Positions 45,253 through 48,345 of a DNA stretch of 49,340 nucleotides are shown one piece after another. Origin of the DNA: Candidatus Kapaibacterium sp. (GTDB lineage: Bacteria > Bacteroidota > Ignavibacteria > Kapaibacteriales > Kapaibacteriaceae); assembly GCA_018883125.1 (NCBI GenBank), contig VEQR01000017.1:1-49340 (forward strand), written 5' to 3'. Position 1 is the first letter of the stretch, and every line of letters begins with the position of its first letter. The translations under genes were made by a program, and so were the position numbers. The notes under the pieces are model-generated. The model worked only from the letters and a program-made list of their open reading frames with translations, made no database searches and was not told where the DNA came from.

Positions 45253-45400
45253 TCGGCACTTCCCTTTCGTAACAAACGCCGCCAAAATACACACTTGCGC
45301 CAACATCGCGATAGCTCGGTGGAGGTGAAGCCGTGATACCATAGAGATAGGTCTTATTCGTCTTTGGGTGGCGTTAATTCACACTCTACTGAACGACCAC

Positions 45401-46747
45401 ATGGCAGACGACATTCGACTGGCCACAAAGCGACGCCTTGAGGAGATCGACCGCGAGCTCTCAGAACTGCGCACGCAACATTCAGCTCTCAAAGCACGCT
45501 GGGAGCTTGAGAAGCAGCACATCCAAGAAATCCGAGCAACGAAGGCGGAGATCGAAGACGTCAAGGTGCGCGCGGCCGATGCTGAACGTGTAGGTGACTA
45601 CGGTACGGTTGCCGAACTCCGCTATGGAAGAATCCTTGAACTGGAAAAGAAGCTCGCCGCGGCGAATACCGAACTCGAGTCCGTGCAAAAGGACTCAGCG
45701 CTGCTGAAGGAAGAGATCGACGACGCCGATATTGCCGAGGTCGTGGCTAAGTGGACAGGTATTCCCGTTAGTAGGATGCTCGAATCGGAGCGAACGAAGC
45801 TGCTTTCCATGGAGCATCGCCTGCATGAACGTGTGATCGGTCAGCACGAAGCCGTAGTGGCAGTATCCAACGCCATTCGTCGCTCTCGAGCCGGGCTGCA
45901 AGACGCAAAGCGACCAATCGGTTCATTCGTATTTCTCGGATCAACGGGCGTCGGCAAAACCGAGATGGCACGAGCCCTGGCGGAGTTCCTGTTCGATGAT
46001 GATGCCGCCCTTGTGCGTATCGATATGAGCGAGTACATGGAAAAACATTCTGTGGCCCGGCTCATCGGTGCTCCTCCGGGATACGTCGGATACGAGGAAG
46101 GGGGCCAGCTGACCGAGGCTGTTCGACGCCGGCCCTACTCGGTTGTTCTTCTCGATGAGATCGAAAAGGCCCATCCGGATGTGTTCAACGTCCTGCTCCA
46201 GTTGCTTGACGACGGGCGACTCACTGATGGTCAGGGCCGGGAGGTCGACTTCAAGAATGCGATAATCATCATGACCTCGAACCTTGGTTCGGAACTCATG
46301 CAGGACCGGCTTCTCGAGGTGACCGAAGAAAACCGCGATGAGATCACCTCTCAGATGCGACTTGAGATCATCGACCTGCTCAAACGGCGCCTTCGACCCG
46401 AGTTTCTCAATCGTATTGACGAGATAATCCTGTTTAAGCCCCTTGTCCCATCGGAAGTCCAGAGGATCGCCGAGCTGCAGATCGCCGACGTTGCCGCACG
46501 CATGAAGGGGCTGGGCATCGACCTCGTTGTAACGCAGGAATGTATGGACTGGCTTGGTAAACGAGGCTATGATGTGCAGCTCGGGGCCCGTCCACTCAAG
46601 CGGGTGATTCAGCGATACGTTACTGATCCACTTGCTTTGCATGTGCTTGGTGCGGATGTTCGTGCCGGTGAACAGGTAACGGTTGATGCCGACGACACGG
46701 GGCGGATATCGTTTGCGTTCACTGCGCCCGACGAACAACCATCCTGA
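45401..46747 (+). CDS. Short ClpB-like AAA+ ATPase: partial M-domain plus NBD2 only
   Basis: 448 residues from the ATG at 45401 (a GTG start at 45368 would add 11). It aligns with the second half of ClpB/Hsp104. It starts inside the coiled-coil middle domain (RLEEIDRELSELR, LKARWELEKQHIQEIR, AAELRYGR-like VAELRYGR), then LLKEEIDDADIAEVVAKWTG and the whole second ATPase domain: Walker A GSTGVGKTE, pore loop APPGYVGYEEGGQL, Walker B VVLLDEIEKAHPD, sensor-1 MTSNLGSE, arginine-finger region RRLRPEFLNRID and sensor-2 GARPLKR. The N-domain and NBD1 are absent and no remnant is found in the 148 bp upstream. The frame is intact, so it looks like a real short form or a 5'-deleted gene. Confidence 0.88.
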   Translation: MADDIRLATKRRLEEIDRELSELRTQHSALKARWELEKQHIQEIRATKAEIEDVKVRAADAERVGDYGTVAELRYGRILELEKKLAAANTELESVQKDSALLKEEIDDADIAEVVAKWTGIPVSRMLESERTKLLSMEHRLHERVIGQHEAVVAVSNAIRRSRAGLQDAKRPIGSFVFLGSTGVGKTEMARALAEFLFDDDAALVRIDMSEYMEKHSVARLIGAPPGYVGYEEGGQLTEAVRRRPYSVVLLDEIEKAHPDVFNVLLQLLDDGRLTDGQGREVDFKNAIIIMTSNLGSELMQDRLLEVTEENRDEITSQMRLEIIDLLKRRLRPEFLNRIDEIILFKPLVPSEVQRIAELQIADVAARMKGLGIDLVVTQECMDWLGKRGYDVQLGARPLKRVIQRYVTDPLALHVLGADVRAGEQVTVDADDTGRISFAFTAPDEQPS

Positions 46748-46755
46748 CGCACCGC

Positions 46756-48345
46756 ATGAACGCCATCCTTCTCCTGCTGGCATCGATCATTTTCACCCTC
46801 TCGGCAATGGCCCAGGACATTTCAACAGGACCTGGGCTGCCGCGTTCGGAATCCCGCAGCAGCTATATGCGCGGAATGCAATCGGATCCGTCGATCCCGG
46901 CTGCTCGGCTAAGGGTGATGGGAATCGATGAATCCACGGCCGGTGAAGTGCGGGCAACGATCATTGCCCTGGATGCCGAAGGGAACCTACTCCCGGTCTC
47001 GCTCGACCGGATGCCGATTATTGCCGAGGTTGCCTGCAGGGGCGCAAACCCATCACAGTTTGCAATCAAGATGATCAAGGCAGCGAATGCAGAGATGAAG
47101 CCTCAGTCGGTGAGCATGTTTGTGATGTGCGACAACTCAATGCTCTCGGGCACACTGACGCGCGATGTTACGTTGAGTCTTCAGAGGGGGCTTGCCGGTA
47201 TCAGTGATGACGATATGATCGGCGTGGGTGTTTACAACCAAACGTTTACCACCGTTCTGCCGATGGGCCCGGCATCTGAGCTCAACGCCAATTTCAAGCT
47301 TGAAGATGTGCCAATGGCCGACGGACTCTCGTCGCTGTACAGTGCATCACAAAACGCCTGCCGCATCCTATCAAACTCGCCCGAGCGTCGAGCCCTGGTC
47401 ATCGTTACGGCAACACCTGATAATGCCACGCCCTTCAGCACCACGATGGATGTTGTACGTCTGGCTCGTGATGCACGCATACCGGTGTTCGTGATACGCG
47501 TCGGACTTGAAGCGGCAGGCCAGCCCCTTCGCTACATCACCTCATCAACTGGTGGACGCATCTACACCGTGCAACCGGATGAGACGAATGCCATCGGCGA
47601 TATCGTCCGCGAGATACTCTACGCCCAGAAGTGGTCAACGGAGGTGTCCGTGCAGGCCGATGTGCAGGACTTCGTCAACTGCGAAACCCCATGGCTGCGC
47701 CTGCGCCTGGAATCAGAGTCTACCTCATTACCGATCGTCGATTCGATCGCGCTCACACCACTCGATATGTCGATCGAGACCAACCCATCGATCGTTGCCC
47801 TCTTCAGGGACACAACCGATACAGACCTGCGTGAATACTATCAGTCACTGCTTGTCATCAGTGAAGTACTGTCCCAGAACCCGGCGATGAGCATTGAGCT
47901 GGTTGGGCACGTCAGCAGCGATGTTGGACCCAACGCCGATGCACGGGCTCTCGATCGTGCGAAACAGGTCCGCTCATTCCTCATCGCCAACGGTGTTATC
48001 GCATCGCAGATCATCGTGCGCTCCGAAGGAAGCCGTAAACCTCGATATTACTTCCAGACAGACGGCACACGGCGTCTGCTGAATAACCGAGTCGAGGCGC
48101 AAATCATCGTTGACGGAAAGGCAAGTCATACGATCACCGTTGAGCAGGTCGACAACGAGCAGACCGCTATGCTGCGCCTGAAGCAGTGGAAGGACCGCAA
48201 GCTGAACGCCTATTATGAACCGGTCCTCGAGGATGGCATGACCCGTTATCGCATCAAGCTCTGGGGTTTTTCAAGCCTTGCTGAGGCCAAGAATGTGGCA
48301 ACGGACATCAAGAAGTACAAGCCGACGTACTCCATCGTCGAATAA
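46756..48345 (+). CDS. Exported VWA/OmpA/SPOR envelope protein
   Basis: 529 residues with a signal peptide (about 1-20, ending AMAQ). A VWA-like domain follows (about 100-290) with a degenerate MIDAS, DNSML, where DxSxS is usual. An OmpA-type peptidoglycan-binding domain lies at about 355-455 (SIELVGHVSSDVG, RALDRAKQVRSFLIANGV, LLNNRVEAQI). A C-terminal SPOR-like domain (about 462-529; YRIKLWGFSSLAEAKNVATD) would bind denuded glycan strands. It is inferred to anchor to peptidoglycan in the periplasm. It starts 8 bases after the ClpB-like stop, so the two may share a transcript. Convergent with trxB. Confidence 0.78.
   Translation: MNAILLLLASIIFTLSAMAQDISTGPGLPRSESRSSYMRGMQSDPSIPAARLRVMGIDESTAGEVRATIIALDAEGNLLPVSLDRMPIIAEVACRGANPSQFAIKMIKAANAEMKPQSVSMFVMCDNSMLSGTLTRDVTLSLQRGLAGISDDDMIGVGVYNQTFTTVLPMGPASELNANFKLEDVPMADGLSSLYSASQNACRILSNSPERRALVIVTATPDNATPFSTTMDVVRLARDARIPVFVIRVGLEAAGQPLRYITSSTGGRIYTVQPDETNAIGDIVREILYAQKWSTEVSVQADVQDFVNCETPWLRLRLESESTSLPIVDSIALTPLDMSIETNPSIVALFRDTTDTDLREYYQSLLVISEVLSQNPAMSIELVGHVSSDVGPNADARALDRAKQVRSFLIANGVIASQIIVRSEGSRKPRYYFQTDGTRRLLNNRVEAQIIVDGKASHTITVEQVDNEQTAMLRLKQWKDRKLNAYYEPVLEDGMTRYRIKLWGFSSLAEAKNVATDIKKYKPTYSIVE

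What the first reader, a model, noticed from the sequence alone, without database searches (positions are those of the whole stretch)
45401..46747. ClpB variant reduced to part of the M-domain plus the second ATPase domain
Seen: an intact 448-residue frame begins inside the ClpB coiled-coil and continues through a complete NBD2 with all AAA+ motifs; the N-domain and NBD1 are missing and the 148 bases upstream hold no remnant. Known: full ClpB is a two-ring disaggregase in which NBD1 and the M-domain contact DnaK. Inference: this may be a single-ring disaggregase or unfoldase, or a subunit that mixes with a full ClpB elsewhere. Linkage to a VWA/OmpA/SPOR envelope gene is unexpected.
Basis: partly seen in the sequence, partly recalled or inferred. 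Interest (0 to 1): 0.58.

Follow-up and report, generated by a model that had tools for sequence, protein, structure and literature searches.

The report
A heat-shock disaggregase in two pieces
The short ClpB gene in this window is one half of a normal protein-untangling machine whose other half is encoded elsewhere in the genome, and the same two-gene arrangement recurs in related bacteria and in green sulfur bacteria.

Summary
In detail: window 45401-46747 is an intact 448-codon frame holding most of the ClpB M-domain and all of NBD2, without the N-domain and the core of NBD1. The genome has no full-length ClpB, but an unlinked 433-aa gene supplies the missing part (ClpB profile 1-431; this frame is 430-848). 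ClpB is therefore split into two proteins.

The split is conserved. Of 60 genomes sampled from the window's order, 58 have the C-half and 53 the N-half, none fused. It recurs in four other families of the class and in three families whose tested members carry the green-sulfur FMO protein. Every junction that could be read lies at one spot, the tip of M-domain motif 1. Both halves are under purifying selection, and 117 of 130 genomes of split families have both.

Most likely the two chains assemble into an ordinary two-ring, DnaK-linked disaggregase of twelve chains. This is inferred, not shown. The single-ring idea, and mixing with a full ClpB, are not supported for this genome. One fission or several is unresolved. 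My paper searches found no description.

The parts
45401..46747 (+). C-half of split ClpB (448 aa): M-domain helices L2-L3, end of NBD1, complete NBD2
45404..45592 (+). codons of predicted long helix 2-64 (M-domain L2), which starts where the partner protein ends
   Evidence: AlphaFold2 model of the C-half, mean pLDDT 84.2; junction listing
45599..45685 (+). codons of predicted helix 67-95 (M-domain L3, motif 2, the DnaK-docking end); includes the equivalent of E. coli Tyr503 (Tyr75)
   Evidence: role of motif 2 from PMC4023160 (passages)
45911..46426 (+). NBD2 AAA_2 core
   Evidence: Pfam PF07724 residues 171-342
46451..46684 (+). ClpB D2-small domain
   Evidence: Pfam PF10431 residues 351-428
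45357..45362 (+). TTCGTC promoter-like element 44 nt before the start codon; also found before N-halves and clpC in relatives
   Evidence: chosen by eye, function inferred
46756..48345 (+). VWA/OmpA envelope gene 8 bases downstream; frequent neighbour of the C-half in the order, possible operon partner (not part of ClpB)
   Evidence: Pfam OmpA 7e-10, VWA below its cut-off, no SPOR match; 10 of 11 other own-order loci

Best explanation
Window 45401-46747 encodes the C-terminal half of a naturally split ClpB. The N-terminal half (N-domain, NBD1 and M-domain helix L1; 433 aa) is a separate, unlinked gene at G000:C175:6252-7553. Shown: the two proteins together cover the ClpB profile end to end, with no full-length copy found in the genome; the arrangement is conserved in many relatives; both halves are under purifying selection and usually occur together. 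Inferred: each N-half pairs with one C-half through the L1/L2 helical hairpin of M-domain motif 1 and through NBD1, whose last segment after the M-domain lies in the C-half. Six such pairs form the usual two-ring hexamer (twelve chains). It threads aggregated proteins using NBD1 (from the N-half) and NBD2 (from the C-half), and DnaK recruits it through motif 2, carried by the C-half. The only covalent change is an open tip on motif 1.
For: Own genome: N-half profile 1-431, C-half 430-848, no match over the ClpB cut-off. Order sample: C-half in 58 of 60, N-half in 53 of 60 genomes, no fused frame among them (some in pieces). Single-contig genomes G014, G024 and G057 carry the halves 2.1, 0.32 and 0.34 Mb apart (linear coordinates), so this is no assembly error. 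Class sample: 51 of the 127 genomes with a match belong to split families (f1, f2, f3, f9, f13, f15, f19, f22), 76 to families with full-length frames. Families f33, f35, f48: N-half in 34 of 34, C-half in 32 of 34 and as fragments in the other two. No genome of the class sample showed two ClpB matches at the thresholds used. Same break site wherever it could be read. dN/dS 0.03-0.10 in nine C-half pairs, 0.00-0.05 in seven N-half pairs. Co-occurrence over 130 genomes of split families: both 117, C only 6, N only 2, neither 5, Fisher p 3e-5; the two N-only genomes hold C-half fragments, and in the 124 genomes rated at least 90% complete p is 0.0002-0.002. dnaK found in 20 of 20 genomes tested, 18 over the cut-off. 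Covalent linkage of the two NBDs is not needed for chaperone activity in ClpB: title of Beinker 2005, seen as reference 21 in PMC4239642, whose text says T. [quoted passage not shown]
Against: No experiment; no complex could be predicted with these tools. Six genomes (G001, G007, G009, G011, G049, G099) show only the C-half; G001 and G011 are rated 100% complete. G001 also has only a partial dnaK, so its assembly has gaps, but a C-half acting alone in some of the six is not excluded. Two C-halves look broken: G024 is read in two frames and G112 has an in-frame stop. The laboratory T. thermophilus split leaves the M-domain on NBD1, not mostly on NBD2 as here. Overall conservation of the M-domain helices is the same in split and full-length forms, so it gives no independent sign of a new interface.
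Confidence: 0.86

Rival explanations
1. The C-half works alone as a single-ring (NBD2-only) unfoldase, like animal Skd3/CLPB, and the N-half has its own job.
For: Single-AAA human CLPB chains match the NBD2 part (7ttr, 7us2, 8zr0); six genomes show the C-half without the N-half, and none firmly the N-half alone.
Against: Exact complementarity at one profile position, both halves absent together in 5 genomes (two of these are only 67-80% complete), the same break in separate lineages, NBD1 divided between both chains. No ankyrin domain.
Confidence: 0.08
2. The two halves are joined after transcription or translation (split intein or trans-spliced RNA), giving a normal ClpB.
For: Unlinked halves with an exact junction are what such systems produce (general knowledge; no call supports it).
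Against: N-halves stop 1-15 residues after the conserved Glu431, and C-halves (nearest ATG taken as start) begin about 6-14 residues before the conserved Arg12, leaving no room for an intein; no Rfam family, hence no known intron, at the gathering threshold in five loci from three genomes.
Confidence: 0.03
3. Assembly error, pseudogene, or recent deletion of clpB.
For: The genome is a 199-contig assembly; G024 and G112 C-halves look broken.
Against: Same state in single-contig genomes and in dozens of species; dN/dS mostly near 0.05 or lower.
Confidence: 0.01

Closest known systems
ClpB / Hsp104 disaggregase (TIGR03346)
   Same: The halves match complementary parts of the profile (683 and 624 bits); N-domain, NBD1, M-domain and NBD2 are all present between them.
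   Different: Two polypeptides from unlinked genes, each below the 1232-bit cut-off; motif 1 of the M-domain has an open tip.
Laboratory split of T. thermophilus ClpB (Beinker 2005; only its title seen, in a reference list)
   Same: Two ATPase halves as separate chains, which by the title retain chaperone activity.
   Different: That cut leaves the M-domain on NBD1 (construct name NBD1-M); here most of the M-domain goes with NBD2, and the split is natural.
Chlorobaculum tepidum ClpB 1 and ClpB 2 database entries (recalled from Swiss-Prot, not checked here)
   Same: Probably the two halves of the same split form.
   Different: Recalled as two numbered 'probable chaperone protein ClpB' entries, not as a described two-gene machine.
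Human mitochondrial CLPB/Skd3
   Same: Single AAA+ domain homologous to ClpB NBD2.
   Different: Ankyrin domain (abstract of PMC9934407, listing) instead of an M-domain; no separate NBD1 chain (recalled).

Membership tests
ClpB disaggregase | N-domain and NBD1 | tested here: met
   Met by the partner gene at G000:C175, profile 1-431; not met by the window protein alone
ClpB disaggregase | ClpB-type M-domain coiled coil | tested here: met
   L1 at the end of the N-half, L2 and L3 in the C-half
ClpB disaggregase | NBD2 with D2-small domain | tested here: met
ClpB disaggregase | Single polypeptide above the family cut-off | tested here: not met
   625 against 1232 bits; 0 over the cut-off in the own genome
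ClpB disaggregase | Hexameric two-ring assembly, DnaK-dependent disaggregation | not testable with these tools
   Only the presence of dnaK was tested: 20 of 20 genomes, 18 over the cut-off
Skd3-type single-ring disaggregase | NBD2 only, with N-terminal ankyrin repeats | tested here: not met
   No ankyrin match; M-domain present
Split intein / trans-splicing | Intein or intron sequence flanking the junction | tested here: not met
   (five loci for the intron test)

The most novel reading that the evidence does not exclude
Probability: 0.2. Interest if true: 0.78.

Novelty: new variant of a known kind. Interest (0 to 1): 0.62.

Why it matters
ClpB is normally treated as one chain with two coupled motors. 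Here nature has made a separation like the one biochemists make in the laboratory, at the regulatory tip of the M-domain, and kept it through an order and in green sulfur bacteria. It offers a natural system for asking whether the two rings must be covalently coupled. It may also correct surveys that count ClpB as missing: one paper says only one Chlorobi species has this protein (PMC1887533, passages), whereas all 34 sampled genomes of the three FMO-type families (FMO tested in 12 of them) have the N-half and, at least in fragments, the C-half.

Tried and rejected
Second full-length clpB in the genome: none. A complete ClpC (C13) is present. Split intein or trans-splicing: no sequence for it. 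Recent deletion or misassembly: rejected by relatives and single-contig genomes.

One fission or several: not settled. The quick tree (87 rows, 52 split) needs 3 changes of state, and its starred branches force 2. Holding the 40 split rows of the own class together gives a likelihood 8.7 units higher than the free search found (p-AU 0.756). Holding all 52 together costs 24.3 units but is not rejected (p-AU 0.181). A FastTree of the C-part alone, with 15 named loci added, gave 6 changes, 3 forced. Synteny: gpsA lies near the C-half in loci of f1, f4, f8, f10, f13 (2 of 3) and f35, and in 0 of 20 full-length loci, but not in the f33 and f48 loci; gene order differs, so it only hints at common descent.

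Junction conservation: some residues beside the break are more uniform in split forms (N-half L428 52 of 52; C-half R12 in 50 rows), others are less so (N-half Q420), and the mean entropies are alike (helix L1 0.64 against 0.68, L2 1.63 against 1.66). I place no weight on it.

CIRCE-like and sigma-32-like sites: none and 7 weak (3-mismatch) hits in 126 upstream stretches. The TTCGTC element was picked by eye after seeing the sequences, so its p value (4e-16) is inflated, and the f1 genomes are related; outside the order it is nearly absent (1 of 63 stretches).

Of 80 named loci, 70 are full length and 10 short; eight of the ten are cut at a contig end or broken in the N part, and only L030 and L031 show this split.

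Full report
What is there. The frame at 45401-46747 is intact, starts with ATG, and encodes 448 residues that match ClpB from profile position 430/431 nearly to the end. NBD2 is complete. ClpB chains, E. coli's first, are among the closest solved structures by sequence and fold. The AlphaFold2 model (mean pLDDT 84.2) shows two long helices (2-64 and 67-95) followed by NBD2.

The missing half exists elsewhere. A ClpB profile search of the window's own genome found no match over the family cut-off, but an N-half on another contig (C175, profile 1-431), this C-half (430-848) and a complete ClpC on C13. The N-half protein is 433 aa: N-domain, NBD1 and a final helix ending ...QLEIERQALLRETS. Its model has lower confidence (mean pLDDT 80.6) and matches ClpB, Hsp104 and ClpC chains.

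It is conserved. I searched 60 genomes, the own one included, drawn from the window's genus, family and order. The C-half is found in 58 of 60 (not in G010 and G022; in G015, G024, G033 and G041 in two pieces, in G005 cut by a contig end) and the N-half in 53 of 60 (not in G001, G007, G009, G010, G011, G022, G049). None is fused. In a sample of 139 genomes of the class, 127 have a C-part match: 51 belong to families where the frame is a half (f1, f2, f3, f9, f13, f15, f19, f22) and 76 to families with full-length frames (four of these cut: G073, G103, G157, G173). In a phylum sample of 138 genomes (133 with a match) the half form is also found in f33 (2 genomes), f35 (26, and 2 below the threshold) and f48 (4). 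Of these 34, twelve were tested for the FMO protein (PF02327) and all twelve have it, against 0 of 10 genomes of other families, so I take these families to be green sulfur bacteria and kin. N-halves were found in 34 of 34, C-halves in 32 and as fragments in the other two.

Same break everywhere. In every split pair whose junction could be read, the N-half stops 1-15 residues after a conserved Glu (ours is 431) and the C-half, taking the nearest ATG, starts about 6-14 residues before a conserved Arg (ours is 12). G020 and G112 could not be read. In full-length proteins the same place is a short link of variable length. By the alignment the C-half's residue 8 is E. coli residue 436, so the last conserved N-half residue corresponds to about E432 (the E. 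coli letters before 436 are recalled). K431 and E432 belong to M-domain motif 1, which touches motif 2 of the next subunit in the repressed state; E432A is a repressed mutant, and deletion of motif 1 deregulates ClpB (PMC4023160, passages).

Both halves look functional. dN/dS is 0.033-0.099 for nine C-half pairs and 0.000-0.049 for seven N-half pairs (many synonymous distances are near saturation and one is infinite). Pairwise distances of the N and C parts correlate at 0.82 in split and 0.87 in full-length rows, as expected of vertical inheritance. Against this, the C-half of G024 is read in two frames and that of G112 has an in-frame stop. In 130 genomes of split families, 117 have both, 5 neither, 6 only C and 2 only N; the two N-only cases have C-half fragments. 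Restricted to the 124 genomes rated at least 90% complete the association holds (p 0.0017, or 0.0002 with fragments counted). G010 and G170 lack both halves yet keep dnaK and clpC, which fits joint loss. The C-only cases may be gaps: G001 also has only part of dnaK. G011 is a better candidate for a real C-only state.

Gene neighbourhood. Full-length clpB lies near a gene of the dnaK family in 9 of 20 loci examined (one member checked as HSP70); no member of that family lies in the split-half loci. In the window's order the C-half is followed by a VWA/OmpA gene (21-32% identity to the window's) in 10 of 11 other loci, from eight families; f3 and f9 were not looked at. In family f22 both halves lie on one strand 5.8-7.6 kb apart in 8 of 8 genomes (coordinates), with five genes on the other strand between them in the four loci read. 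This looks like an interrupted gene, though it may be secondary.

Regulation. In family f1 a TTCGTC hexamer lies 15-75 nt before the start of 10 of 16 N-halves and 12 of 18 C-halves and before 5 of 6 f1 clpC genes. In one search it lies before 1 of 38 window genes (the C-half itself) and 7 of 164 other f1 genes as printed, two of which are N-halves. Seven of 15 genomes with both halves read have it before both. The own N-half has only a near match (TCCGTC). In the order's other families it is before 13 of 42 halves, elsewhere before 1 of 63. It resembles an ECF-type -10 element (recalled). It hints at co-regulation of the unlinked halves, but it was chosen after looking.

Mechanism. Since the M-domain is an insertion in NBD1 (PMC4239642, passages), a cut inside it leaves NBD1 built from both chains. 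The likely product is an obligate N/C pair, six of which form the two-ring machine. That separate chains can work is supported by a T. thermophilus study of which I saw only the title in a reference list. Assembly, stoichiometry and activity of the natural pair are inferred.

Known or new. Searches of the open-licence paper library for split ClpB, ClpB with Chlorobium, Chlorobaculum or Chlorobi, gene fission, and separate genes or domains showed no description in the listings (the listings were capped). I recall Swiss-Prot entries ClpB 1 and ClpB 2 of Chlorobaculum tepidum that are probably the two halves; not checked. A 2007 paper states that only one Chlorobi species contains ClpB (PMC1887533, passages), which the present data contradict if the FMO-type families are Chlorobi. 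I rate it a new variant of a known kind.

Noticed in passing
window 45357-45362; upstream of clpC in L002, L317, L320, L322, L324 (f1) and L315 (f19): TTCGTC promoter-like element shared by both clpB halves and clpC in the window's family, rare before other genes; possibly an alternative-sigma stress promoter.
   Followed up: partly
window 46756-48345 and L216, L217, L219-L225, L273: A VWA/OmpA envelope protein gene follows the ClpB C-half in eight families of the order, an unexplained chaperone-envelope pairing.
   Followed up: partly
L257, L259, L260, L342: In family f22 five genes on the opposite strand (one a PAS histidine kinase by Pfam) sit between the two clpB halves.
   Followed up: partly
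G010, G170: Genomes rated 97-100% complete that lack both ClpB halves but keep dnaK and clpC.
   Followed up: partly
G011 (L344): A divergent C-half (61% identity against 69-73% for most other genera of the family) in a genome rated 100% complete without a detectable N-half; a candidate for a C-half working alone.
   Followed up: no
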